Assembly (NCBI RefSeq): GCF_004014775.2
Contig: NZ_CP042808.1
Coordinates: forward strand, 1,302,001 to 1,366,000
Direction of reading: 5' to 3'
DNA from: Acetobacter oryzoeni
GTDB lineage: Bacteria; Pseudomonadota; Alphaproteobacteria; Acetobacterales; Acetobacteraceae
DNA length: 64,000 nucleotides
Part shown: in pieces, positions 32,772-53,184 of the stretch
Position numbering within the stretch: position 1 is the stretch's first letter
Layout of the letters: each line of letters starts with the position of its first letter
Program-made: the position numbers and the translations under genes
The notes under the pieces: model-generated
What the model saw: the letters and a program-made list of their open reading frames with translations, nothing else
What the model was told of the DNA's origin: nothing
The model's database searches: none

Positions 32772-35411
32772 ATGCGATTAGCCAGACGCTTTTCCCTTCT
32801 TGCCACCACACTCTGCACCGTTTTGCCTTCACTTTCAGTTGCAGAAACAACCGAAACAACAGCTACACACCGTAAAGTTTCACATCAGCATGCTGGGAGT
32901 GTAGCTGGTAAATCAGTTGCTCAAACTACAGCTCCCCCGGCAGCAACAGCCAGCCATAAAAAAAATAATACAAAAGCTCTATATGCTACGGATGTAGAAA
33001 CCGTAAATGTTTCAACCGGCACCCATTCAACCAACCGCAAGGCACGGCAGAGCACATCTCCCGTTACAGTTGTATCGGCCGCAACTTTGCGCCGTTCAGG
33101 GCAGGTCAACTTAGCAGATTCATTGGTCCGCACTTATGCTTCCATTAACGTGCAGGCTATGGCGGCAGATAGTGCAGCCCTTACGTCCTCCATTCAGATG
33201 CGAGGGCTTAACCCGAACGAAGTGCTGGTACTGGTTGATGGCAAACGCCGTCATTCAACCGCAAATATTGTTGCCGATGCCGGACCGCAGTTTGGTTCAA
33301 CCGGCGTTGATCTGAACATGATTCCGGCAAATGCTATTGATCATATTGAAGTATTAGAAGATGGCGCAGCCGCCATGTACGGTTCGGATGCCATTGCGGG
33401 TGTTGTGAATATTATTACAAAAAAGGAAGATCACGGCCTGCATATGTCTGCCCAGACAGGCGCCAATGCTTATAATGGTGATGGCTGGCAGTACCAATTA
33501 AATGCAGATGGTGGCCTGAAGCTGGGTGAAGATGGATACATCCATATATCCGGCCAGATCACACACACAGATCATTACGTTGTAAAAACAAAAGATCATC
33601 GCCTTTTAGGGTCATGGCCTGAAGGGGCAACAACAACGGGCTATTATAATGGTATCGTGCCCAACGCCATGAATGTGCCATTGGATTCCAATAAGATCAT
33701 GAGCACACCAGAGGAAACACGGGAAAACCTTGCCATTGATTTTGGCAAGAAAATTACCGATGGCATCAACTTTTATGGTTTGATCACCTACGCGCATCGC
33801 TATGGCGAAGCCTACGAAAACTATCGTATTCCAACCATAGCCCCCTCTTATTATCCTTATGGCTTCTCACCTCTCGAAACCATTCGGGAAGATGACTACG
33901 CGGCAACCCTTGGCCTTAAAGGTGATAACTTTTTCGGTTTTGATTGGGATCTGAGCACCACTTATGGTGCAGATGAAACTAAAATTGGCAATAAAAATAC
34001 AGCCAATACGGGTATGCTGTCTTCTGATTGTTCTTCAGATCCAACATCTTCCAACTACTCATCCCTTGGTTGTGGCTGGACCCCAACAACAGTTCGAGCT
34101 GAAACATACAGGTTGGCACAGTGGACCAATAATCTGGACTTTCGGCGGCACTTTAATATTGCCCAGAAAGTTCCCATGCTGCTGGCATTTGGCGGTGAAC
34201 ACCGGCTGGAAACATATGATCTAAAAGCTGGCAATGCCGCATCCTATATTCTGGGAGGAACACAAGGTTACGCCGGTATTGGGCCACAAAGCGCAGGCAG
34301 CTGGAGCCGTGATATCTGGGCCGCTTATGTAGATGGTGATTTCCACCCGCTTAAAAACTGGGATCTGGATTTTGCTGGGCGTTTCGAGCACTATACAGAC
34401 GTTGGAAATACCGAAAACGGCAAGGTTTCTACGCGGTATGATATAACCCGACGCATTGGTGTGCGCGGAACCATCAGCACCGGTTTTCGTGCTCCTACCC
34501 TGCCAGAGCAGCATTATTCCGCTATGAACGTGGATCCAAACGGAGCATCCGGCCTGTTGCCGGTTGATTCCGAAGCAGCCCGCACTCTGGGGGCTAGCAA
34601 ACTCAAGCCGGAACGTTCTGTCAGTGCCAGTGGTGGCATTGTTGTTGAACCTGTTGAAGGGTTCCATGTTGAAGCAGATGTTTATCAGATCAACCTGCGA
34701 GACCGTATTGTGGGCGGTGGCACGGTTAAAGGCGCATCGGCCATTTCGGCCATTGAACAACTTGGTTATCTGCTACCTTCCAATGGTCTGATTGCAGACA
34801 ACGTATCTGCATATTACATGACCAATGGTGCCAGCACGCGTACTCAAGGGCTGGATATCAAAGCAGACTATACGTTCCGTTTTCGTAAAGCAGGCACTCT
34901 GGCTTTAACGCTGGCGCTAGATCTCAATCGCACGCGCCTGCACCACAATGCTCTGGATACAAATGGCAATTCCTTGCTGAATGCACAGAATATTGCCTAC
35001 ATCACGACTGCCTACCCACGTAGTAAAATTATTCTGAACGCATTTTACCATTACAAAAACTGGGACTTTAACGTACGAGAAACCCGGTATGGTGAAACAA
35101 CCTCCATGCTGACCTATTACGACTGGCAGAACCAGAACACGCCCTGCTCTGGAGGTGGAAATCTGGCTTACTCCAACACGTGCTTTAGCCAGTTTAAAAA
35201 CACACCACGTTGGATGACCGATATTGAAATTGGTTACCGCTTTAACAAAAACTGGCACATGGCTGTTGGCGTCAACAATATTGCCAATGTCCGGCCCCGT
35301 ATTGTTGCGCAGATCAATAATTCGCGCGGTGCACAACCATATGACCAGTTCTCACTGCAGGTACCAATCACAGGTGCCTACTACTATGGTCGCCTGAACG
35401 CAGATTTCTAA
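32772..35411 (+). CDS. TonB-dependent outer membrane receptor
   Basis: 879 residues. A signal peptide (about 1-24, LATTLCTVLPSLSVAE) leads to a Thr/His/Ala-rich linker, then the plug: SPVTVVSAATLRRSGQVNLA, SIQMRGLNPNEVLVLVDGKR and IDHIEVLEDGAAAMYGSDAI, which is the classic plug end with GVVNIITKK. The barrel includes RGTISTGFRAPTLPEQHY and closes with YYYGRLNADF, ending in the aromatic residue needed for barrel assembly. The style is that of receptors for plant-type or vitamin-type compounds as well as siderophores; the ligand is not shown. A strong terminator follows, so it is transcribed apart from the amine oxidase operon just downstream. Confidence 0.95.
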   Translation: MRLARRFSLLATTLCTVLPSLSVAETTETTATHRKVSHQHAGSVAGKSVAQTTAPPAATASHKKNNTKALYATDVETVNVSTGTHSTNRKARQSTSPVTVVSAATLRRSGQVNLADSLVRTYASINVQAMAADSAALTSSIQMRGLNPNEVLVLVDGKRRHSTANIVADAGPQFGSTGVDLNMIPANAIDHIEVLEDGAAAMYGSDAIAGVVNIITKKEDHGLHMSAQTGANAYNGDGWQYQLNADGGLKLGEDGYIHISGQITHTDHYVVKTKDHRLLGSWPEGATTTGYYNGIVPNAMNVPLDSNKIMSTPEETRENLAIDFGKKITDGINFYGLITYAHRYGEAYENYRIPTIAPSYYPYGFSPLETIREDDYAATLGLKGDNFFGFDWDLSTTYGADETKIGNKNTANTGMLSSDCSSDPTSSNYSSLGCGWTPTTVRAETYRLAQWTNNLDFRRHFNIAQKVPMLLAFGGEHRLETYDLKAGNAASYILGGTQGYAGIGPQSAGSWSRDIWAAYVDGDFHPLKNWDLDFAGRFEHYTDVGNTENGKVSTRYDITRRIGVRGTISTGFRAPTLPEQHYSAMNVDPNGASGLLPVDSEAARTLGASKLKPERSVSASGGIVVEPVEGFHVEADVYQINLRDRIVGGGTVKGASAISAIEQLGYLLPSNGLIADNVSAYYMTNGASTRTQGLDIKADYTFRFRKAGTLALTLALDLNRTRLHHNALDTNGNSLLNAQNIAYITTAYPRSKIILNAFYHYKNWDFNVRETRYGETTSMLTYYDWQNQNTPCSGGGNLAYSNTCFSQFKNTPRWMTDIEIGYRFNKNWHMAVGVNNIANVRPRIVAQINNSRGAQPYDQFSLQVPITGAYYYGRLNADF

Positions 35412-35418
35412 AATAAGT

Positions 35419-35455
35419 AATGCAGAGCGTTTAATTTTAAACGTTCTGCATTTTT
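35419..35455 (+). terminator. Intrinsic terminator after the TonB receptor
   Basis: A stem of 16 pairs (one G-T) spans 35419-35452, from AATGCAGAGCG to its complement CGTTCTGCATT, and runs straight into TTTTT at 35451-35455. This is a textbook rho-independent terminator. Confidence 0.88.
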
Positions 35456-35502: not shown

Positions 35503-37104
35503 ATGGCAAGTCCATCACGCACCCCTTCGCAAACACGGCGGCAACTGTTGAGCCGCATTGGCATGGTAGCAGGAAGCGCTGCACTTTATCAGGCCATGAC
35601 CAGCATGGGTCATGCCATGGGAACAGATTTTTCCGGCCCGCCCAAACTATCAGGGACAAAAAAAGGAACATCAGTTCTGGTTCTGGGGGCTGGCCTTGCA
35701 GGTATGTTGAGCGCCTACGAACTACGAAAGGCAGGATACAATGTTAAAATCCTTGAATTTCAATCACGTAGTGGTGGTCGTAATATCAGCCTGCGTGGGG
35801 GAGATACAGTAACAGAACTGGGGGGCGCAACGCAAAAAGTTGGTTTTGCTTCAGGAAATTATATTAATCCAGGCCCGTGGCGTATTCCCTACCACCATCA
35901 AGGACTTTTGCACTACTGCCGCGAATTTGGTGTGCAGCTTGAACCATTTATTGAGCTCAATCATAACAGCTGGCTCCATTCAACGGGCTCTTTTGGTGGC
36001 AAAGCTGTGCGCTACCGGGAATTGGCGGCTGATTTTAATGGATTTACGGCAGAACTGCTGGCCAAGGCAGTAGATCAACACAAGCTGGATGATCTAGTTA
36101 GCACGGATGAGGTTGCCCACCTTAAAGAGGCCATGCGTGGCTGGGGCGCCCTTACACCTGAATTGGCTTATACTAAGGGGAATACCAGCTCCTTACGCCG
36201 TGGGTTTGAAAAACCGCAGGGTGGTGGCTTGAATGGTGCCCCGGTTCCCTCTGATCTGATGCAGCGAAACGAAATTTGGAAATCCGGCATGTGGAACTGG
36301 ATGGCATTCCATGAGCGGCTGGATATGCAGACAACCATGTTCCAACCTGTTGGGGGCATGGATAATATTGGCAAGGCATTTACCAAGCAGGTGCGGGATT
36401 TACTGCAACTTCAATGCAAGGTTACAGCCATTCATCAAGACGTTAATGGCGTTACTGTAACCTATAACGATATGCAGCACGCTGGTGCAGTAAGGCAAGC
36501 CAAGGCTGATTATTGTGTATGCACCATCCCTCTTTCCATTCTGTCACAACTGGATGTGCAGGTAAGTGCTGGTATGAAAGCAGCCATAGGTGCTGTGCCT
36601 TACGCATCTTCCGTCAAGCTTGGTCTGGAGTTCAAACGGCGTTTTTGGGAGGAAGATGACCAGATTTACGGCGGTATCAGCTTTACCGATCAACCAATCA
36701 GCCAGATTTCCTATCCAAGCCACGGTATTTTTTCCAAAGGACCAGCCGTGCTGTTAGGAGGATATATGTTTGGCCCAGCAGCATATGACTTTGCTGGCAT
36801 GACACCACAAGAAAGACTGGAAGAAGGCATAAAACAGGGGCTGGCCTTTCATCCACAATACCGCAAGGAATTCCTTAATGGCGTGAGTTTTGCCTGGAGC
36901 CGCGTACCTTGGACATTGGGGTGCTGTTCTATGTGGAGTGAAGAAGCCCGCAAAACCCATTACAAAACCCTATGTTCGATTGACCAGAGGATTGTTCTGG
37001 CCGGAGAACACGCCTCTTACGTAGGATGCTGGCAAGAAGGGGCTATTCTTTCCGCGTTGGATGCCGTCACACGTTTGCACAAACGAGCACTGGGAGCCGC
37101 CTGA
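35503..37104 (+). CDS. Tat-exported flavin amine oxidase
   Basis: About 533 residues. A twin-arginine signal is at the N-terminus (SQTRRQLLSRIGMVAGSAAL). The FAD fold begins with VLVLGAGLAGMLSAYELRKA and SRSGGRN, the dinucleotide and GG-motifs of the monoamine oxidase family. The substrate domain includes QTTMFQPVGGMDNIGKAF. The end, RIVLAGEHASYVGCWQEGAI, is the usual flavin-contacting C-terminus. ATG 35503 has AGGA 7 nt upstream; ATG 35479 is also possible but its AAGGGA is too close. Its stop overlaps the start of a cytochrome c gene (TGATG), and a secreted RidA follows. The likely electron acceptor is therefore the cytochrome and not oxygen, as known for the NicA2-type oxidases. The amine substrate is unknown. 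Confidence 0.92.
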   Translation: MASPSRTPSQTRRQLLSRIGMVAGSAALYQAMTSMGHAMGTDFSGPPKLSGTKKGTSVLVLGAGLAGMLSAYELRKAGYNVKILEFQSRSGGRNISLRGGDTVTELGGATQKVGFASGNYINPGPWRIPYHHQGLLHYCREFGVQLEPFIELNHNSWLHSTGSFGGKAVRYRELAADFNGFTAELLAKAVDQHKLDDLVSTDEVAHLKEAMRGWGALTPELAYTKGNTSSLRRGFEKPQGGGLNGAPVPSDLMQRNEIWKSGMWNWMAFHERLDMQTTMFQPVGGMDNIGKAFTKQVRDLLQLQCKVTAIHQDVNGVTVTYNDMQHAGAVRQAKADYCVCTIPLSILSQLDVQVSAGMKAAIGAVPYASSVKLGLEFKRRFWEEDDQIYGGISFTDQPISQISYPSHGIFSKGPAVLLGGYMFGPAAYDFAGMTPQERLEEGIKQGLAFHPQYRKEFLNGVSFAWSRVPWTLGCCSMWSEEARKTHYKTLCSIDQRIVLAGEHASYVGCWQEGAILSALDAVTRLHKRALGAA

Positions 37105-37520
37105 TGCGTAAATTTCTTCTTGTTTCGGCTCTGGTGAGCATTCTTGTGCCTAGTGGTTGGGCTCGGGCAGATAGTGCAAGCGCTATATCCGGCAAAATGG
37201 AAGACTTACCATCAGGTGAGGCTATTTACCGGCATATCTGCCAGAGTTGCCATATGCCTGATGGACAGGGTGCCGTTGGAGCCGGGGCGCAAATTCCTGC
37301 CTTGGCGCATAATTCCCATTTACAGGTTGCAAGCTACCCTGCCACGGTTATCCTTAACGGTTACGGAGCCATGCCTTGGTTTGCGGGCTTGTTAAATGAC
37401 AAACAAATTGCGGATGTGGTGGATTATATTCGCACGCATTTTGGCAATAATTACAAAGATAAACTTAAACCGTCGGAAGTGGCACTCATGCGCCCTCACC
37501 TGACTGCAGAGGAGCAATAA
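37104..37520 (+). CDS. Small periplasmic cytochrome c
   Basis: 138 residues from ATG 37104. The signal peptide is about residues 1-23 (LVSALVSILVPSGWARAD). One haem c site, ICQSCHMPDG, is at about residue 50, and the axial Met is in NGYGAMPWFAGL. A C-terminal helix DKQIADVVDYIRTHFGN completes the class I fold. The start codon overlaps the amine oxidase stop, and a longer frame starting at 37026 lies wholly inside that gene and is rejected. Inferred role: electron carrier from the flavin amine oxidase to the respiratory chain. Confidence 0.92.
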   Translation: MRKFLLVSALVSILVPSGWARADSASAISGKMEDLPSGEAIYRHICQSCHMPDGQGAVGAGAQIPALAHNSHLQVASYPATVILNGYGAMPWFAGLLNDKQIADVVDYIRTHFGNNYKDKLKPSEVALMRPHLTAEEQ

Positions 37521-37524
37521 GTTC

Positions 37525-38046
37525 ATGCGTTTCTTCAAATTATTCGGGGTTTCAACCTTACTTGCGACAACAATTTTTGTAGCAATGGGATCAGCGGCAC
37601 CAGCATATGCTCAGAGCGATATTATACGGTATAACGAGGCGACTTTTCCTATTGCATCTGCAATTGAAGTGCCAGCCGGATATTCCACTATTTATCTGAG
37701 CGGTATGGGCGCTCCTGTAATCAACCCTCAAGCACCTGCAAAATCTCTGGAAGCCTACGGTAACATGGCAGCCCAAACGGAAGGCTCACTTAAACGAATA
37801 GAGGAAACACTCAAAGGCATGGGGCTAACCATGGGCAATATCGTGCAGATGCATATTTTTATGGTAGCCGATGCCCAAACCAAGAAACTGGATTTTGCAG
37901 GAATGATGGATGGTTACAAAAAATTCTTTGGCACAAAAGCACAACCTAACTTACCTGTGCGTTCAGCTTTTGCCGTAGCGCAGCTTGCTAATCCCGGATG
38001 GTTGATTGAAATTGAAGTTGTGGCCGTAAGACCAGCCCATCATTAA
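37525..38046 (+). CDS. RidA family protein with Sec signal peptide (periplasmic)
   Basis: 173 residues. An N-terminal signal peptide (LLATTIFVAMGSAAPAYAQS, cleaved near residue 30) precedes a complete RidA domain. The Arg and Glu that define imine-deaminase members are present, at about Arg146 (LPVRSAFAV) and Glu162 (WLIEIEVVAV), by comparison with Arg105 and Glu120 of E. coli RidA. Canonical RidA proteins are cytoplasmic, so export is unusual. AGAGGAG lies within the end of the cytochrome gene, 4 nt upstream of which translation stops, so the three genes form one operon. Inferred job: hydrolysis of the imine made by the amine oxidase. Confidence 0.92.
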   Translation: MRFFKLFGVSTLLATTIFVAMGSAAPAYAQSDIIRYNEATFPIASAIEVPAGYSTIYLSGMGAPVINPQAPAKSLEAYGNMAAQTEGSLKRIEETLKGMGLTMGNIVQMHIFMVADAQTKKLDFAGMMDGYKKFFGTKAQPNLPVRSAFAVAQLANPGWLIEIEVVAVRPAHH

Positions 38047-38112: not shown

Positions 38113-38598
38113 TTAGGGATGGAAGGCCGAAGCGGTATCTGTTGCAACCGCATCATCTAAATCATCCGTTGCACCACTTACGCCCACAGCACCAATAAGG
38201 TATTGGCCACTCATAACAGGAGCAGACCCTGGCACAGCAGTAATGCCTGGCAATGTTGTTAAAAATGCCTGATTTTGACTGACACGCTCAGCAAGAACTT
38301 TTCCTCGTGAATGATATAGTGCTGCTGTGCGTGCTTTCTTGATGGCAGTTTCATCAGTTCCGGATTGAGAATCATCCATCCGGGTAAATGCAAGCAGCCT
38401 GCCCGATCCATCAACAACAGCAATGCTTACCTTCATGCCACGTTGTTTGGCTTCTGCCTCAGCTGCGTTAAGCAGGCTTTTTGCACCAGCATTACTCAGC
38501 ACATCACGCGTGAGTATCTTGCTGTCATCTGCATGTGCCACGGTTACTGTAGACAAGCATGCCAAAATGGCCAATGGCCCCAAATATGCACGTTTCAT
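38113..38598 (-). CDS. Secreted HbpS/GlcG-like protein, copy 1
   Basis: 161 residues. A signal peptide (about 1-23, LACLSTVTVAHAD) precedes a GlcG/HbpS domain: NAAEAEAKQRGMKVSIAVVD, GSGRLLAFTRMDDSQSGT, KKARTAALYHS and LIGAVGVSGATDDLDDAVA. The HbpS branch binds haem and cobalamin-like ligands in some species; others are of unknown role. It is downstream of a paralogue (copy 2) by 53 nt on the same strand, so the two are probably cotranscribed. They converge on the amine oxidase operon, which gives no shared transcription but suggests a shared periplasmic setting. Confidence 0.9.
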   Translation of the reverse strand: MKRAYLGPLAILACLSTVTVAHADDSKILTRDVLSNAGAKSLLNAAEAEAKQRGMKVSIAVVDGSGRLLAFTRMDDSQSGTDETAIKKARTAALYHSRGKVLAERVSQNQAFLTTLPGITAVPGSAPVMSGQYLIGAVGVSGATDDLDDAVATDTASAFHP

Positions 38599-38651
38599 CT
38601 GATATCTTATCCTAAAGCTGTTTTAACAACTTGTATTTTCAGGAAGACGCA

Positions 38652-39125
38652 TTAACGAAAATTCTTGGCTGTATCGACAACAAGAGCCTGTTCTGCTTCA
38701 TTGGTATCGCCACTTGTACCAATGCTGCCAACTACAGTATCGCCCTGTTTAAAGACCGCACCGCCAGCAGATGGCAAAATGCCAGGAACAAAACCAATAG
38801 GAAGATTTTGTGCACGCGCTGCTTCAAAAAATTCCATAGTATTGCGTGCAAATCGTGCAGCCGATTTAGCTTTGGCAATCGAAGCTTCTACGCATCCGGC
38901 ATATGCTCCCTGCATACGGATAAAAGCAACAAGATTGCCATCTGTATCTTCAATTGCAACGCATAGCTTAAGGTGTCGGCTTTCAGCCAAACCAACTGCA
39001 TAATGCGCCATATCCAACGCTGCTTCTGTTGTAATATTAAGCTGCGGTGCTGTGGATGCAGATTGAGCAAACGCAGTAGATGCACACAACGCAGTAGATG
39101 CAAACGCTGCAAGTATCTTTTTCAT
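38652..39125 (-). CDS. Secreted HbpS/GlcG-like protein, copy 2
   Basis: 157 residues from ATG 39125. A signal peptide (about 1-22, FASTALCASTAFAQS) precedes a GlcG/HbpS domain: YAVGLAESRHLKLCVAIEDT, GNLVAFIRMQGAYAGCVEAS and VGSIGTSGDTNEAEQALVVD. It shares the layout of copy 1 but diverges in the middle and keeps two Cys in the mature part that copy 1 lacks. A TTG at 39131 could start the frame but ATG is preferred. The 291-nt AT-rich region upstream must hold the promoter. Confidence 0.9.
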   Translation of the reverse strand: MKKILAAFASTALCASTAFAQSASTAPQLNITTEAALDMAHYAVGLAESRHLKLCVAIEDTDGNLVAFIRMQGAYAGCVEASIAKAKSAARFARNTMEFFEAARAQNLPIGFVPGILPSAGGAVFKQGDTVVGSIGTSGDTNEAEQALVVDTAKNFR

Positions 39126-39416
39126 TGCCAAGGGTACCTTATTGGAAGTGTTATTATTGACCCATCGTGACGTTTATTATCCCCAGCAAAATACCAAAGA
39201 ATGTAAACGCCTTTCACCACATAACTTGACATGAGAATCATCATATCGAGTAATAATTTACAACAGTATAAATAATAAATGTAATATTTATTTTCTTATT
39301 CACATATATTTGATTATTATAATGTAGTTTATTATATTTTTATTTCACTATATTACATGCATGTCCTGTGTAATAGTTTCCAAAATATCTCTTTCTGATG
39401 GTAACGTGTAGCCAGT
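39126..39416. other. Very AT-rich intergenic region
   Basis: About 291 bases with long A/T runs and no gene. It contains an inverted repeat AATAAAT/ATTTATT at 39274-39292, which could occur by chance in such a composition. It must hold the promoter of the HbpS-like pair and the transcript end of the DoxX-like gene. Confidence 0.5.
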
Positions 39417-48011: not shown

Positions 48012-49211
48012 ATGATCAGCAACATCACTCTCTCAAATCATGCTTTTTCTCGGAGACATGCTCTCAAAAGTCTTGCTGGGGGCATTGCGTTAAGCAGTAT
48101 TGGCACAATCGGCATTTCACGTGCTGTGGCTGCAAATCTTCCCCCGCATTTACACGCAACTGTTATTGCATCTTCCCCGCGTTATCTGTGTAACGCCATT
48201 GCTGCAACACAAAATGGCACAGTATTTTTGGGGGCTCCACGATGGGAAGGCATGAATGATACCCCCGGTGTCTTTCGTGTATCTTCCAATGGAACACTTC
48301 AACCTTTTCCTGGAGGAACATGGAACCAGTGGAAGCAGGGTGCTGATCCAGCCAATGCTTTCATTATGATAAACGGCCTGCATATTTTCAGTGATGATAC
48401 CTTGTGGGTGGTTGATCAAGGTATAGACCCCTCTACAGGCAGCACAGTAGATGGCGGCCAAAAGCTGGTTCAGCTTGACCCGAAAACCGGCAAAGTGCTG
48501 CAGATTTTGCGTTGGGGGAAAGATATTCTGCCTACTGGCGCGGCAATGAATGATTTGCGCATTGCTGGAGATCTGATGTTCATCACAGATTCCGGTTTAG
48601 GTGGCATTATTATTTATAATATGCGCAGCGGAAAAACGGTAAGGCGGCTTTCTGAGCATCCATTATTACGGGCAACATACAGTAAACCCATGATCGGACG
48701 TGACGGCCATGTGTTCCGTGACAAGAATGGCAAGCGTCCTCTTGTTCATTCGGATATGTTGGAAATTACAGCAGACCGTAAATGGTTTTACTTCTCCACT
48801 CCTATCGGGCCGCTACGCCGTATTCCCACCTCGGCCCTTTTGGATGATAGTCAAACAGATGCTCAGCGCGCTGCGCAAATTGAAACAGTTATCGATATGC
48901 CAACCATGATGGGCACGGCGATTGATACACTGAACAATTTCTATTTTGCCGATGCAGAGCAAGGGCAAATTATTGTTTTGACACCAGAGAAAAAGAAACT
49001 TGTGTTGTTTGAAGATTCTCGGTTGGTTGATGGTGATGCGCTATTTATTACCGCCGATCGCAAAATGCTGGTGCCTATTCCTCAAACCGAACGGCTGCCT
49101 ACAAATAATGCAGGTGTAAACGCTTTAAAACCACCTTTTATCAGCCTTTCTTTTCCTCTTCCTGAAACACTGCAAGGTCATCGTCTAGGTGACGTTGTGA
49201 GTGGCCTTTAA
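48012..49211 (+). CDS. Major royal jelly protein/Yellow-like beta-propeller with Tat signal
   Basis: 399 residues. A twin-arginine signal (FSRRHALKSLAGGIALSSIG) predicts periplasmic location. The mature part follows the MRJP/Yellow pattern: NGTVFLGAPRWEG, GTLQPFPGGTWNQW, DTLWVVDQGI, LVQLDPKTGKVLQILRW and AMNDLRIAGDLMFITDSGLG with GIIIYNMRSGKTVRR. These are six-bladed propellers related in shape to SMP-30 and gluconolactonase. Function in bacteria is mostly unknown. It lies between a sugar-acid permease and a three-subunit FAD dehydrogenase, so hydrolysis of a lactone made by that enzyme is one idea; there is no direct evidence. AAGAAGAG lies about 6 nt upstream of the ATG. Confidence 0.9.
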   Translation: MISNITLSNHAFSRRHALKSLAGGIALSSIGTIGISRAVAANLPPHLHATVIASSPRYLCNAIAATQNGTVFLGAPRWEGMNDTPGVFRVSSNGTLQPFPGGTWNQWKQGADPANAFIMINGLHIFSDDTLWVVDQGIDPSTGSTVDGGQKLVQLDPKTGKVLQILRWGKDILPTGAAMNDLRIAGDLMFITDSGLGGIIIYNMRSGKTVRRLSEHPLLRATYSKPMIGRDGHVFRDKNGKRPLVHSDMLEITADRKWFYFSTPIGPLRRIPTSALLDDSQTDAQRAAQIETVIDMPTMMGTAIDTLNNFYFADAEQGQIIVLTPEKKKLVLFEDSRLVDGDALFITADRKMLVPIPQTERLPTNNAGVNALKPPFISLSFPLPETLQGHRLGDVVSGL

Positions 49212-49345: not shown

Positions 49346-50071
49346 ATGAGACGCCGTGATGCTTTAAAGGGGGGGCTGGTGTTGTTAGCAACAAGCACGC
49401 TGGCCTCTATTTATAAACCTGCTTATTCAAAAACACTTGTGGGAGGAAGTGGCGGCTGGAAAGCACAGCCCCCGCCCCCATTATCCGTGGTTGATTCCAG
49501 CAAGTTGGTTTATCTTACACCAGATGAGGCAAAGCTGGTTGGGGCAGTATTTGATGTTCTTATACCTGCTGATGAACTTGGTATAGGCGCCACCGAAGCC
49601 GGATGTGTGACATTTCTTGATCATCAACTTGCAGGCCCCTATGGTTCAGCCGCAAAGGATTACAAGCTGGGGCCCGTTGTGGAAGGTCTGCCGCAACAAG
49701 GGCCACAAAGCATTGCAACACCAGCAGAAATCTATCGGAAGGGCTTGGCAGAACTCAATAACGTCAGCCAGAAAAAATTTGGTCATCCCTTTCTGAATCT
49801 AACAGAAGAACAAAAAGTCGCATTTCTTGAGGGAATGGAAGACGGAACGATTGATTTTGAAACCGTCAAAACCAAAGATTTCTTTACCCTTCTACTTCAA
49901 AACGTACGTGAGGGGTACCTGGCCGACCCAATGTATGGTGGTAATCGCGATATGGTTGGATGGAAGCTTATAGGGTTTCCTGGTGCAGTTTATGATTACC
50001 GTGACTGGATTGTCTCCAAACGCGGTCAAAAGATTGATGTGCAACCCGTTAGTCTTTTGCGGACTGGGTAA
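49346..50071 (+). CDS. Gluconate 2-dehydrogenase subunit 3 family protein (small subunit)
   Basis: 241 residues. A Tat signal (MRRRDALKGGLVLLATSTLA) is followed by the subunit 3 domain: KLVYLTPDEAKLVGAVFDVL, IPADELGIGATEAGCVTFLD, LNLTEEQKVAFLEGM and FFTLLLQNVREGYLADPMYG with NRDMVGWKLIGFPG. This small subunit carries the folded flavoprotein through the Tat pathway. AGAGGA precedes ATG 49346. The order small, large, cytochrome in the next two genes is the standard FAD dehydrogenase layout of acetic acid bacteria. Confidence 0.94.
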   Translation: MRRRDALKGGLVLLATSTLASIYKPAYSKTLVGGSGGWKAQPPPPLSVVDSSKLVYLTPDEAKLVGAVFDVLIPADELGIGATEAGCVTFLDHQLAGPYGSAAKDYKLGPVVEGLPQQGPQSIATPAEIYRKGLAELNNVSQKKFGHPFLNLTEEQKVAFLEGMEDGTIDFETVKTKDFFTLLLQNVREGYLADPMYGGNRDMVGWKLIGFPGAVYDYRDWIVSKRGQKIDVQPVSLLRTG

Positions 50072-50149
50072 TAACTCCACACCGATCTGCTGCCTGAAAA
50101 ATAATACTCAGCATATCCTCACAAAGTAATAAAAATAAGGTGCAGCCAA

Positions 50150-51925
50150 ATGCATTATAAAAGACCAAAAGCTGATGTTGTAATTGTCGGTCTAGGGTGG
50201 TCTGGTTCTACAATGGCCGAGGAGCTTACCCGTGCAGGATTGAATGTTGTTGCCATCGAACGCGGTGCGTGGCGTGAAACATCAACGAGCTTTCCCACAA
50301 CACGAAATCCGGATGAGCTAAGTGGGTCTATCCGTAAGGAAATCCTTCAAGCGCCGGTTACAGAAACCTATACGGTTAGAAATAAACCGGGCGAAACAGC
50401 GCTTCCTTTACGCAAATACCATAACCTGACTTTAGGCAATAACGTTGGAGGGGCCGGAACACATTGGGCTGGTGCCAGCTGGCGCTGGCAGCCTTTTGAC
50501 CACCAACCATATACCCGCATTATGGAGCGATATGGCGCCAAACAACTGGTAGATGGTCTTATCCTACAAGATTGGGGCGTTACTTATGATGATCTGGAAC
50601 CGTTCTATGATCGCTTCGAAAAAATTGCCGGAACATCAGGCACCGCTGGTGTTATCAATGGTGTAAAGCAGCCGGGGGGCAATCCGTTTGAAGGGTCCAG
50701 AACCAGCCCTTACCCAACCCCTGCCCTAGAACGTACGCGCGCCAATATTTTGTTTGCAGAAGCAACAACACGGTTGGGTTATACGCCTTTTCCCGTGCCT
50801 TCTGCCATGATTGGGGCTCCTTACACCAATGCACTTGGCATCAATCTGGCCCCTTGTACCTATTGTGGATACTGCCAGCTTTATGGATGTGGCAACTGGT
50901 CCAAATCTAGCCCCAATATCTGCATTCTTCCTGTTCTTATGCAGCGTCCAAACTTTACAGTCGTTACGGAATCAGAAGTTGTTCGCATTAATACGACACC
51001 AGATAAAAAAACGGCTACAAGTGTTACGTTTGTAGATTCAGATGGCAATATTGGAGAACAACCCGCTGATATTGTTATTGTTGCCACATTCACGCTCGAT
51101 AACACCCGGCTTTTGCTCTTATCCGGTATTGGCACCCCATATGATGCTGTATCTGGAGAAGGTGTTGTGGGAAGAGCATTTACATTTCAAACGCTCTCCT
51201 GGGCATTCATGTTTTTTGAAAATGAATACCTCAATCCATTCATGAATACGGGAGCTTTGGCGACACAGATTGACGATTTTAATGGTGATAATTTTGATCA
51301 TACAGGACTAGGATTTATAGGCGGTGCCGGAATTCAATCCTTGTGCAATCAAGGGTTGCCAATTGGCATGTCTGGTCTTGTTCCTGAAGGTAGCCCCAAA
51401 TGGGGAAAAGGCTGGAAACAGGCTTTCCAGAAAGCATATCAGAATTATGCGCAAATTCAGGGGCAAGGCACAAGCTTTGCACACCGTGAACAGTTTATGG
51501 ACCTTGATCCAACTTACAAGGATAAGTTTGGGCAACCTCTGCTGCGTATTACATATGATTATAACGAGAATGACCGCCGGTCTGGTCGGTTTATCCGAGA
51601 CAAATGTGCAGAAATTGCCAAGGAAATGGGCGCTAGAGAAGTTACTGGTGTTTCATTGGCAGACCAACCCTATTCTGGTTACACACCGTGGGATTCATCT
51701 CATGTTCAAGGGGGAGTGGTCATGGGGGAAAATCCTAAAACCAGTGTGCAAAACCGTTATCAGCAAAACTGGGATATTCCCAATCTGTTCGTGATTGGTG
51801 CCTCCTCCTTTCCCAATAATGCCGGATACAACCCAACTGCTGCTGTAGGCGCAACAACGCTGTGGACGGCAAAAGCCATTACAGATCTGTATCTCAAAAA
51901 TCCTGGCCCATTGGTGAGACTGTAA
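50150..51925 (+). CDS. GMC-family FAD dehydrogenase large subunit (gluconate 2-dehydrogenase type)
   Basis: 591 residues, no signal of its own, as expected when it is carried by subunit 3. The FAD site is VVIVGLGWSGSTMAEELTRA with AIERG; GNNVGGAGTHWAGASWRW is the GMC flavin loop. A Cys-rich patch LAPCTYCGYCQLYGCG at about residues 230-245 may hold an iron-sulfur cluster, as described for related membrane FAD dehydrogenases. The C-terminal NLFVIGASSFPNNAGYNPTA carries the active-site His/Asn region. AAGG lies 9 nt upstream of the ATG. The subunit oxidises a sugar, polyol or aldonate; the exact substrate is not readable here. Confidence 0.94.
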   Translation: MHYKRPKADVVIVGLGWSGSTMAEELTRAGLNVVAIERGAWRETSTSFPTTRNPDELSGSIRKEILQAPVTETYTVRNKPGETALPLRKYHNLTLGNNVGGAGTHWAGASWRWQPFDHQPYTRIMERYGAKQLVDGLILQDWGVTYDDLEPFYDRFEKIAGTSGTAGVINGVKQPGGNPFEGSRTSPYPTPALERTRANILFAEATTRLGYTPFPVPSAMIGAPYTNALGINLAPCTYCGYCQLYGCGNWSKSSPNICILPVLMQRPNFTVVTESEVVRINTTPDKKTATSVTFVDSDGNIGEQPADIVIVATFTLDNTRLLLLSGIGTPYDAVSGEGVVGRAFTFQTLSWAFMFFENEYLNPFMNTGALATQIDDFNGDNFDHTGLGFIGGAGIQSLCNQGLPIGMSGLVPEGSPKWGKGWKQAFQKAYQNYAQIQGQGTSFAHREQFMDLDPTYKDKFGQPLLRITYDYNENDRRSGRFIRDKCAEIAKEMGAREVTGVSLADQPYSGYTPWDSSHVQGGVVMGENPKTSVQNRYQQNWDIPNLFVIGASSFPNNAGYNPTAAVGATTLWTAKAITDLYLKNPGPLVRL

Positions 51926-51927
51926 TC

Positions 51928-53184
51928 ATGACACGAAATCTGCTTCAGCGTACTGTGCGTCTCAGTTTTCGCAATAGCATTATTTTTTCTCTTACGGCGC
52001 TTCCCGTTTATGCTGCGCAAGCTGAAAACGTACATGTAGAACACGGCCGGTATCTCTCAATCGCCGGGGATTGTCTTGCGTGCCATACCACCGCAGGAGG
52101 CAAACCTTTTGCCGGTGGGCTTGACCTGAAAACGCCATTTGGCGTTATTACCACCAGCAATATCACTTCAGACAAAGAAACCGGTATTGGTAACTGGACA
52201 TTCCAACAGTTTGATAATGCAGTTCGTCATGGCAAAGGCCCCAATGGGCACCTTTACCCCGCTATGCCCTATACTGCTTACGCTCAGATAAGCGACACTG
52301 ACATTGCTGATTTGTGGTCATACATTCAAACAATAGCGCCTGTTCATAACAAGGTAGAAAGCAACAAACTTCCTTTCCCGTATAATATTCGGGCCTTGCT
52401 GGTATTTTGGAATCTTTTATTCTTTAACAATTCTGCATTTGTGCCTGATCCTACCAAAAGTGCAGACGTAAATCGCGGTGCCTATCTGGTTAAGGGTCTG
52501 GAACATTGTGGAACATGCCATACCCCCAAAAATGCTTTTGGGGGTGATACAAAAGATGCGTTCCAGGGCGCATCGCTTCAGGGATGGTACGCGCCAGATC
52601 TCACCAACAATGCCCATATTGGTCTTGGTCGATGGACTATAGAAGACATTGTTGCATATTTGCGAAGCGGCACTAACCGCTATACCGCTGCATACGGGCC
52701 CATGACGGAAACAATCGTCAATTCCACACAGCACCTCACCGATGCAGATCTGCATGCGATTGCAGTTTATTTTAAATCTTTACCACCACGCAACATTACA
52801 ATCCCTGCACCTCTTCCAACGTCTAACGAACAGGTGCAAGCCGGACAACATGAATTTATTGTAGAATGTAGTGCCTGCCATAAAAGCGATGGTACAGGGA
52901 TATCAAATATGATTCCTGATCTTCGGAATAATTCAGCTATTAATGCTAAAAATCCAGATAGCCTGTTGAATATTGTGCTGAAAGGCACAGACGGGCCAGC
53001 AACACATGCAAACCCTACAGGCGCGGCAATGCCAGGATTTGATTGGAAATTGCAGGATCAGCAAATTGCTAATGTTCTAACTTACATCCGCAATAGCTGG
53101 GGAAATGCTGCACAAGCCGTTTCCGCAACCGATGTCAATAAAGCAAGGGCTGCCATTGGCGCCCAACCGGCAACCTTACGCTAA
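51928..53184 (+). CDS. Triheme cytochrome c subunit of the FAD dehydrogenase
   Basis: 418 residues from ATG 51928, only 2 nt after the large-subunit stop. The signal peptide is about 1-35 (IIFSLTALPVYAAQAE). Three haem c sites are present: DCLACHTTAGG, HCGTCHTPKN and ECSACHKSDG, spaced as in alcohol and gluconate dehydrogenase cytochromes. Axial Met candidates are in YPAMPYTAY, YGPMTETI and AAMPGFDW. A conserved stretch LPFPYNIRALLVFWNLLFF lies between haems 1 and 2. It passes electrons from the flavoprotein to ubiquinone in the cytoplasmic membrane. A strong palindromic terminator follows. Confidence 0.95.
   Translation: MTRNLLQRTVRLSFRNSIIFSLTALPVYAAQAENVHVEHGRYLSIAGDCLACHTTAGGKPFAGGLDLKTPFGVITTSNITSDKETGIGNWTFQQFDNAVRHGKGPNGHLYPAMPYTAYAQISDTDIADLWSYIQTIAPVHNKVESNKLPFPYNIRALLVFWNLLFFNNSAFVPDPTKSADVNRGAYLVKGLEHCGTCHTPKNAFGGDTKDAFQGASLQGWYAPDLTNNAHIGLGRWTIEDIVAYLRSGTNRYTAAYGPMTETIVNSTQHLTDADLHAIAVYFKSLPPRNITIPAPLPTSNEQVQAGQHEFIVECSACHKSDGTGISNMIPDLRNNSAINAKNPDSLLNIVLKGTDGPATHANPTGAAMPGFDWKLQDQQIANVLTYIRNSWGNAAQAVSATDVNKARAAIGAQPATLR

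What the first reader, a model, noticed from the sequence alone, without database searches (positions are those of the whole stretch)
35503..38046. Periplasmic amine oxidase, cytochrome c and exported RidA in one operon
Seen: a Tat-signal flavin amine oxidase, a Sec-signal monohaem cytochrome c starting in the oxidase stop codon, and a RidA protein with its own signal peptide 4 nt later. Known: NicA2-type amine oxidases use cytochrome c instead of oxygen, and RidA members with the Arg and Glu seen here hydrolyse imines; RidA is usually cytoplasmic. Inference: a self-contained periplasmic pathway that oxidises an amine or amino acid, sends electrons to the respiratory chain and clears the reactive imine at once. 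I know of no description of such a module.
Basis: partly seen in the sequence, partly recalled or inferred. Interest (0 to 1): 0.78.

Follow-up and report, generated by a model that had tools for sequence, protein, structure and literature searches.

The report
Exported amino-acid oxidation operon in Acetobacter
Three neighbouring genes appear to make an exported enzyme set that oxidises amino acids outside the inner membrane, hands the electrons to a small cytochrome and clears the reactive by-product; the same gene set was already described in a related bacterium, where it is needed to make a plant hormone, so this is mainly a new copy with a few unreported features.

Summary
In detail: 35503-38046 carries a Tat-signal flavin amine oxidase, a Sec-signal monohaem cytochrome c (TGATG overlap) and a Rid protein with its own signal peptide. 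The oxidase is of the Rhodococcus opacus L-amino-acid oxidase type (best sequence and fold match 2jae; carboxylate-binding Arg and Tyr in 69 of 69 relatives), not NicA2-like. I add: (1) this Rid (Rid3-like) is exported nearly everywhere (79 of 80 named loci by a crude rule; 1 of 160 control frames); (2) the cytochrome is the most faithful partner (beside 24 of 24 close oxidases in the family; 16 have Rid within 1.5 kb); (3) a TonB receptor of one subfamily lies beside 10 of 24, and a related one inside the operon in some other alphaproteobacteria; (4) this genome has no recognisable cytochrome c oxidase, so where the electrons go is open. Best reading: periplasmic cytochrome-c-linked L-amino-acid dehydrogenase with an exported imine deaminase. 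New member of a known kind, with features worth testing.

The parts
35503..37104 (+). FAD L-amino-acid oxidase/dehydrogenase (lao), Tat signal
   Evidence: Pfam Amino_oxidase; 2jae E 1.8e-84, profile E 3.8e-136; AF2 model pLDDT 90, Foldseek top hit 2jae TM 0.85/0.95; RR motif in 69 of 69 named relatives with free choice of start codon and in 23 of 24 close family members, L083 being the exception
37104..37520 (+). Sec-exported monohaem cytochrome c (cccA-like), start overlaps the oxidase stop by 1 nt
   Evidence: CQSCH motif; Pfam Cytochrome_CBB3; adjacent to 24 of 24 close oxidases in the family
37525..38046 (+). exported Rid protein, Rid3-like (ridA of the lao cluster)
   Evidence: Pfam Ribonuc_L-PSP; PDB 9bka/9bkc PSPTO3006/PFL1385, called Rid3 in PMC5619798; Ile at the Tyr position; signal-like N-terminus in 79 of 80 relatives
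32772..35411 (+). TonB-dependent receptor upstream; recurrent neighbour, probably its own transcript here
   Evidence: same subfamily beside 10 of 24 family oxidases
35419..35452 (+). strong hairpin followed by a U-rich stretch between receptor and oxidase, terminator-like
   Evidence: stretch folds at -20.2 kcal/mol, z -5.7; not reported by the consensus terminator scan

Best explanation
The operon encodes a periplasmic L-amino-acid dehydrogenase. The FAD enzyme is exported by Tat, binds an L-alpha-amino acid (tryptophan is the substrate implied by the orthologue's mutants) through its conserved Arg/Tyr carboxylate clamp, and takes a hydride from it, making the alpha-imino acid. The reduced flavin passes electrons to the translationally coupled cytochrome c. 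The Sec-exported Rid hydrolyses the imino acid to 2-oxo acid and ammonium in the periplasm. The 2-oxo acid (indole-3-pyruvate from tryptophan) leaves the cell or is taken up. Shown by sequence: family, motifs, export signals, conserved gene order. Shown by others in the orthologue: lao insertion abolishes indole-acetic acid, and cytochrome c maturation mutants, as cited there, make 5%. Inferred: cytochrome rather than oxygen as acceptor, Rid action on this imine, and the onward route of the electrons, which in this genome cannot be a recognisable cytochrome c oxidase.
For: Closest structure and fold: R. opacus LAAO; Arg127 and Tyr421 in 69 of 69 relatives. Cytochrome gene next to 24 of 24 close oxidases, of which 16 have Rid within 1.5 kb, so the cytochrome is the tighter partner. 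Rid Arg146/Glu162/Glu164 in 80 of 80 named and 9 of 9 class-sample relatives; Rid3 proteins PSPTO3006 and PFL1385 hydrolyse imines made by a venom LAAO in vitro (PMC5619798, passages). Orthologue (78.6% oxidase, 58% cytochrome, 60% Rid identity) in G. diazotrophicus: lao mutants make no detectable indole-acetic acid and leave tryptophan; ccm mutants, as cited there, make 5% (PMC5053998). In the window all three proteins carry export signals.
Against: LAAOs of this fold are known as oxygen-using (recall for R. opacus LAAO); no gating residue was tested. The G. diazotrophicus insertions lower all three transcripts, so single-gene roles are not separated. This genome's only full haem-copper oxidase is a quinol oxidase, so a cytochrome c acceptor needs an unknown exit; one genome with the pair, G037, has neither CoxB over cut-off, FixO nor cytochrome c1. 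Eight of 24 close oxidases have no Rid within 1.5 kb: five lie in genomes that hold the exported Rid elsewhere (G000, G128, G048, G042, G123), three (G069, G109, G130) in genomes without a close Rid. One exported Rid relative, L086, lacks the catalytic Arg and has no oxidase nearby. Signal peptides were called by a crude rule, not SignalP.
Confidence: 0.72

Rival explanations
1. A true oxidase: the periplasmic LAAO uses oxygen and makes hydrogen peroxide; the cytochrome works with a dihaem peroxidase to remove the peroxide, and Rid clears the imine.
For: LAAOs are the nearest structures and are described as peroxide-making (PMC5053998 discussion). The genome has two MauG/MbnH-type dihaem proteins and no CoxB over cut-off.
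Against: Neither dihaem gene is near the module, and both match MbnH/MauG models (one over its cut-off). The cytochrome overlaps the oxidase gene and is kept with it in 24 of 24, which fits a direct redox partner better.
Confidence: 0.17
2. The module mainly serves a TonB-imported substrate: the receptor brings a scarce or bulky amino-acid compound into the periplasm, where the oxidase deaminates it; free tryptophan is a side substrate. (Compatible with the best explanation.)
For: Same TonB receptor subfamily beside 10 of 24 family oxidases; a related receptor on the same strand between or after module genes in L203, L208, L211 and L150.
Against: Not within 1.5 kb of the other 14 of 24 (four of the 24 have short flanks) nor of 58 of 65 named oxidases (in L165 one lies 660 nt from Rid); in genomes such as G030 the nearest relative is on another contig; a terminator-like hairpin separates the genes here.
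Confidence: 0.3
3. Rid acts not as an imine deaminase but as a structural subunit of the oxidase, as proposed for the algal LAAO M-beta subunit.
For: The periplasmic Chlamydomonas LAAO complex has a RidA-like subunit (PMC5053998 discussion; PMC10805672).
Against: Catalytic Arg and Glu are kept in 80 of 80; 3 of 24 close oxidases lie in genomes without a close Rid.
Confidence: 0.12

Closest known systems
lao-cccA-ridA cluster (GDI2456-GDI2454) of Gluconacetobacter diazotrophicus PAL5, Rodrigues et al. 2016, PMC5053998
   Same: Same three genes, same order; oxidase 78.6%, cytochrome 58%, Rid 60% identical to locus L111, G. diazotrophicus PA1 5; Tat signal on the oxidase; cytochrome and RidA proposed as helpers. 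L111's Rid also has a signal-like N-terminus.
   Different: The paper's two uses of 'signal peptide' concern methods and the oxidase, so I saw no statement that RidA is exported; 'TonB-dependent receptor' has 0 occurrences. Our host is another genus (Acetobacter, inferred).
L-amino acid oxidase of Rhodococcus opacus (2jae)
   Same: Best sequence and fold match; carboxylate Arg and Tyr align.
   Different: 35-36% identity; known as an oxygen-using oxidase (recall); no cytochrome or Rid partner known to me.
Rid3 proteins PSPTO3006 and PFL1385 of Pseudomonas (9bka, 9bkc)
   Same: Closest solved Rid relatives; imine deaminases in vitro.
   Different: That paper has no occurrence of 'signal' or 'periplasm'.
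Periplasmic LAAO LAO1 with LAO2/RidA of Chlamydomonas (PMC10805672)
   Same: Periplasmic LAAO with a RidA partner; LAO1 needed for indole-acetic acid from tryptophan.
   Different: Eukaryote; makes peroxide; no cytochrome partner in the passages read.
Slr0782 L-arginine oxidase/dehydrogenase of Synechocystis (PMC2242806)
   Same: Putative FAD amino-acid dehydrogenase thought to feed an electron transport chain rather than oxygen (passages).
   Different: Not compared by sequence here; 'cytochrome' has 0 occurrences in that paper. The cyanobacterial relatives found here, L140 and L173, have oxidase plus exported Rid without a cytochrome match.
Nicotine clusters of Agrobacterium tumefaciens S33 and relatives (PMC7688666)
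   Same: The cluster figure legend lists a Rid protein, a TonB-dependent receptor and a cytochrome c (passages).
   Different: The Rid there is a Rid6 protein proposed for a step that the review places in the cytoplasm; different enzymes.
NicA2 nicotine oxidoreductase
   Same: Same broad flavin amine oxidase superfamily; cytochrome c as acceptor is the parallel.
   Different: No row named as a nicotine enzyme among the 60 profile matches shown (of 121) or the 50 Foldseek rows shown; it may be listed under a generic name or lie below the cap.

Membership tests
lao-cccA-ridA cluster (Rodrigues 2016) | three genes in the order LAAO, cytochrome c, Rid on one strand | tested here: met
lao-cccA-ridA cluster (Rodrigues 2016) | orthology to GDI2456-2454 | tested here: met
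   78.6/58/60% identity to L111, G. diazotrophicus PA1 5, same order; no tree made
lao-cccA-ridA cluster (Rodrigues 2016) | needed for indole-acetic acid from tryptophan | not testable with these tools
   mutants exist only for the orthologue
R. opacus-type L-amino acid oxidase | fold and carboxylate-binding Arg84/Tyr371 (residue roles from recall) | tested here: met
   Arg127 and Tyr421 align with 2jae chain positions 83 and 370, one less than the recalled numbers in both cases; 69 of 69 relatives; TM 0.85/0.95
R. opacus-type L-amino acid oxidase | oxygen as electron acceptor | not testable with these tools
   needs purified enzyme
NicA2-type cytochrome-linked amine dehydrogenase | sequence/fold closest to NicA2 | tested here: not met
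   R. opacus LAAO is closest and other LAAOs follow; not filed here
NicA2-type cytochrome-linked amine dehydrogenase | electrons go to a cytochrome c, not oxygen | not testable with these tools
   only genomic linkage, 24 of 24
Rid family, Arg-bearing imine deaminases (RidA, Rid1-3) | conserved catalytic Arg and Glu | tested here: met
   Arg146, Glu162, Glu164 in the window protein; 80 of 80 named and 9 of 9 class-sample relatives; 17 of 18 in alignment A2 for Arg146 and Glu162
Rid3 subfamily | nearest to Rid3 references; active-site Tyr replaced by Ile (PMC4433059) | tested here: met
   best PDB matches are two Rid3 proteins; Ile43 stands where a RidA-like protein (L021) has the aromatic residue, and is Ile in 80 of 80 and 9 of 9; no tree made, and that this is the Tyr site rests on one pairwise alignment

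The most novel reading that the evidence does not exclude
A widespread group of Rid3-like proteins works only outside the cytoplasm, as secreted or lipid-anchored imine deaminases tied to cytochrome-c-linked amino-acid dehydrogenases and, in several lineages, a dedicated TonB receptor. In acetic acid bacteria that have lost cytochrome c oxidase, the module keeps its cytochrome and drains electrons by an undescribed route (for example into quinone through another membrane cytochrome).
Probability: 0.4. Interest if true: 0.58.

Novelty: new member of a known kind. Interest (0 to 1): 0.36.

Why it matters
It links a gene cluster with mutant evidence for auxin production to a wide export pattern: the imine deaminase travels with the enzyme that makes the imine. 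That makes testable whether imine damage is a problem in the periplasm, where the PLP enzymes usually thought to need Rid protection are few (recall). It also exposes a gap: a conserved cytochrome in genomes without a recognisable cytochrome c oxidase.

Tried and rejected
Rejected: NicA2-like oxidase (R. opacus LAAO and other LAAOs rank first). Rejected: the two HbpS-like genes at 38113-39131 as module parts; no match in the A. lovaniensis locus L101 or in the 40 family stretches. Kept open: TonB receptor as part of the module. Consensus promoter and terminator scans were uninformative (promoters 7 found against 13.2 in shuffles, terminators 6 against 7.6). Paper search with 'RidA family protein', amine oxidase, cytochrome c, operon: 0 papers. 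Fourteen family loci carry only a distant oxidase (36-41% identity, L087-L100): none has a match to the module's cytochrome. A first CxxCH motif scan there was faulty (it missed the known cytochrome of L082); repeated, it finds no CxxCH on the same strand within 1.5 kb in 12 of 14 and a short frame of 73 codons with CRSCH in L097 and L099; L087 and L096 have less than 1.5 kb of downstream DNA.

Limits: signal peptides were called by a home-made rule. The first version was loose and also rang in several of the distant Rids used as controls, so the stricter rule with shifted-frame control is the one quoted. The one miss, L104, is a contig-end fragment whose signal-like stretch has no in-frame start. 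E. coli, phage and plasmid collections were not searched.
Full report
WHAT IS THERE. The three genes are as described. The oxidase (35503-37104) has a twin-arginine N-terminus; the cytochrome starts in its stop codon (TGATG) and has one CxxCH; Rid starts 4 nt after the cytochrome stop and has a charged start, a hydrophobic core and an A-x-A-type cleavage site. Pfam agrees. The host is most likely an Acetobacter: its oxidase is 93% identical to that of A. lovaniensis, and G117, listed as same genus, has a contig of the same length (21,482) as an Acetobacter sp. AN02 contig; this is inference.

WHICH ENZYME. Against solved structures the best match is the Rhodococcus opacus L-amino acid oxidase 2jae (E 1.8e-84; profile E 3.8e-136). 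An AlphaFold2 model (pLDDT 90) matches 2jae at TM 0.85/0.95, ahead of snake, fungal and other LAAOs, with monoamine oxidases further down (50 rows shown). The Arg and Tyr that hold the substrate carboxylate in 2jae (residue roles recalled) align with Arg127 and Tyr421 and are unchanged in 69 of 69 named relatives, all 69 with an RR motif in the first 40 residues when the start codon may be chosen. In the family set 23 of 24 close oxidases have RR; L083 has RK. So the likely substrate is an L-alpha-amino acid.

WHICH RID. The best solved relatives are the Rid3 proteins PSPTO3006 and PFL1385. Niehaus et al. 2015 state that Rid3 has Ile in place of the active-site Tyr (PMC4433059, passages); the window protein and 80 of 80 named and 9 of 9 class-sample relatives have Ile at the matching place (Ile43). 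The catalytic Arg and Glu residues are kept in the same 80 and 9. One exported family relative, L086, has Gly, Thr and Phe instead at 146, 162 and 43, and no oxidase in its 13-kb stretch.

PARTNERS. In the Acetobacteraceae sample (150 genomes) I fetched 40 stretches. Counting the window, 24 oxidases score above 700 bits: all 24 have the cytochrome next door, 16 have Rid within 1.5 kb and 10 a TonB receptor of the same subfamily within 1.5 kb (four of the 24 have short flanks, so Rid and receptor are lower bounds). Of the 8 without, five lie in genomes that hold the exported Rid elsewhere (the second copies of G000, G042 and G123; G128; G048) and three in genomes without a close Rid (G069, G109, G130). 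The window's genome holds a second oxidase-cytochrome pair (76% and 53% identical) with no Rid in 14 kb. The cytochrome is therefore the core partner and Rid the accessory. Fourteen distant oxidase loci (36-41% identity, L087-L100) have no match to this cytochrome; one further distant oxidase, L080 (39.6%), does have cytochrome and Rid.

HOW WIDE. A scan of named genomes with the Rid alignment kept 80 loci: Acetobacter, Komagataeibacter, Gluconacetobacter, Mesorhizobium, Paracoccus, Dyella, Xanthomonas, Pseudomonas, Alteromonas, Variovorax, cyanobacteria and others. Of 80, 66 have oxidase, cytochrome and Rid on one strand within 1.5 kb; one more (L164) has the cytochrome slightly farther; two cyanobacterial loci have oxidase and Rid without a cytochrome match; 11 have no oxidase in the stretch (two of these, L104 and L170, are contigs of about 4 kb). 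Rid has a signal-like N-terminus in 79 of 80; the same rule rings in 1 of 160 shifted frames, which are often cut by stops. Twelve of the 80 and three of the nine class-sample loci have a lipobox-like cysteine in the signal region (some, such as L130, look accidental). In the class-level sample, 11 of 385 genomes have this Rid at E 1e-15 or better. Two of the 11 are the window and G056 (L069), both with signal and all three genes. For the other nine, all nine show an export-like N-terminus on reading the translations (L205 may be a membrane anchor), eight have an oxidase, six the cytochrome and three a TonB receptor in the stretch; in L205 Rid and oxidase lie on opposite strands.

TONB RECEPTOR. 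The nearest relative of the 32772-35411 receptor in its own genome is 44-47% identical over two pieces; the genome has 22 plug-domain matches. The subfamily lies beside the module on either strand in the family. In L203, L208, L211 and L150 a related receptor (444-464 bits against 1,160-1,435 for the family's own) is on the same strand between or after the module genes; L211 has a second such receptor off the module (434 bits). Relatives are also often unlinked: 17 of 22 genomes with the oxidase-cytochrome pair have one at E 1e-40 or better, for example G030 on another contig. In the named set it is within 1.5 kb of 7 of 65 oxidases. In the window a strong hairpin follows the receptor gene, so it probably has its own transcript. 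I read this as a recurrent but optional outer-membrane partner; the substrate is unknown (nearest solved receptors are siderophore, colicin I and B12 receptors, matching the plug end).

ELECTRON ROUTE. The window's genome has one full haem-copper oxidase, typed CyoA/CyoB, a quinol oxidase, and a divergent COX1-like protein (44.8 bits, over the Pfam cut-off of 34.8; 50.6 bits against a cut-off of 670.75 for CtaD) beside a haem O synthase gene. It has no CoxB over cut-off, no FixO, and two cytochrome c1 genes. I did not search for cytochrome bd. This matches published A. pasteurianus 386B: truncated chain, ubiquinol oxidases, two bc1 sets, ctaA/ctaB called remnants of a cytochrome c oxidase cluster (PMC6915089, passages). 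Of 22 family genomes with the oxidase-cytochrome pair, 13 have CoxB over cut-off and 9 do not; FixO is in 2, both with CoxB; cytochrome c1 is in 21, the exception being G037, which has none of the three. So in part of the family the cytochrome's electrons cannot go to a recognisable cytochrome c oxidase; some transfer to quinone or another haem protein is needed. Cut-off-based absence in drafts is weak evidence; for the window's genome (completeness 100, 4 contigs) it is stronger.

WHAT WAS KNOWN. Rodrigues et al. 2016 (PMC5053998; abstract, passages, Results part 1 and Discussion part 1 read) found that two Tn5 insertions in the G. diazotrophicus lao gene abolish detectable indole-acetic acid, that lao, cccA and ridA transcripts drop in the mutant tested, that the oxidase is R. 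opacus-like with a Tat signal, that ccm mutants (cited work) make 5% of the auxin, and that OperonDB shows the organisation in Caulobacter and Xanthomonas. They proposed the cytochrome as electron partner and RidA as imine hydrolase. Niehaus et al. 2015 (PMC4433059, passages) reported RidA or sometimes Rid3 genes clustering with FAD amine oxidases. Chlamydomonas has a periplasmic LAAO with a RidA-like partner (PMC10805672, passages), so an exported RidA beside an LAAO is not without precedent. A fur box ahead of a group including lao is reported in G. diazotrophicus (PMC9368920, passage). Export of the bacterial Rid was not found in my searches (open-licence papers only), nor the TonB association.

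VERDICT. What I did not find in print is the near-universal export of this Rid, the optional TonB partner, and the presence of the module's cytochrome in genomes without a recognisable cytochrome c oxidase.

Noticed in passing
38113-38598 (-) and 38652-39131 (-): Two HbpS-like (PF03928) genes with signal-like starts in tandem, convergent with the operon; no match in the A. lovaniensis locus.
   Followed up: partly
49346-53184 (+): Gluconate-2-dehydrogenase-like trio: PF13618 small subunit, GMC flavoprotein, cytochrome c with three Cytochrom_C stretches; a possible quinone-linked exit for periplasmic electrons of the same general kind (inference).
   Followed up: partly
48012-49211 (+): Protein with a major royal jelly protein domain (PF03022).
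   Followed up: no
L199:2931-5149 (own genome, C1 about 1724-1726 kb): Divergent COX1-like protein (44.8 bits) beside a haem O synthase, looking like a remnant of a lost cytochrome c oxidase cluster.
   Followed up: partly
L061:5799-7816 (own genome, C1 about 2356-2358 kb): Second oxidase-cytochrome pair with no Rid and no related TonB receptor in the 14-kb stretch.
   Followed up: partly
L200:4771-6195 and L202:5138-6457 (own genome): Two MauG/MbnH-like dihaem proteins; the first is about 3 kb from one of the two bc1 sets.
   Followed up: no
L140, L173: Cyanobacterial loci with oxidase and exported Rid but no cytochrome match beside them.
   Followed up: no
L086:6220-6729 (-): Exported Rid relative without the catalytic Arg and without an oxidase in its stretch.
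   Followed up: no
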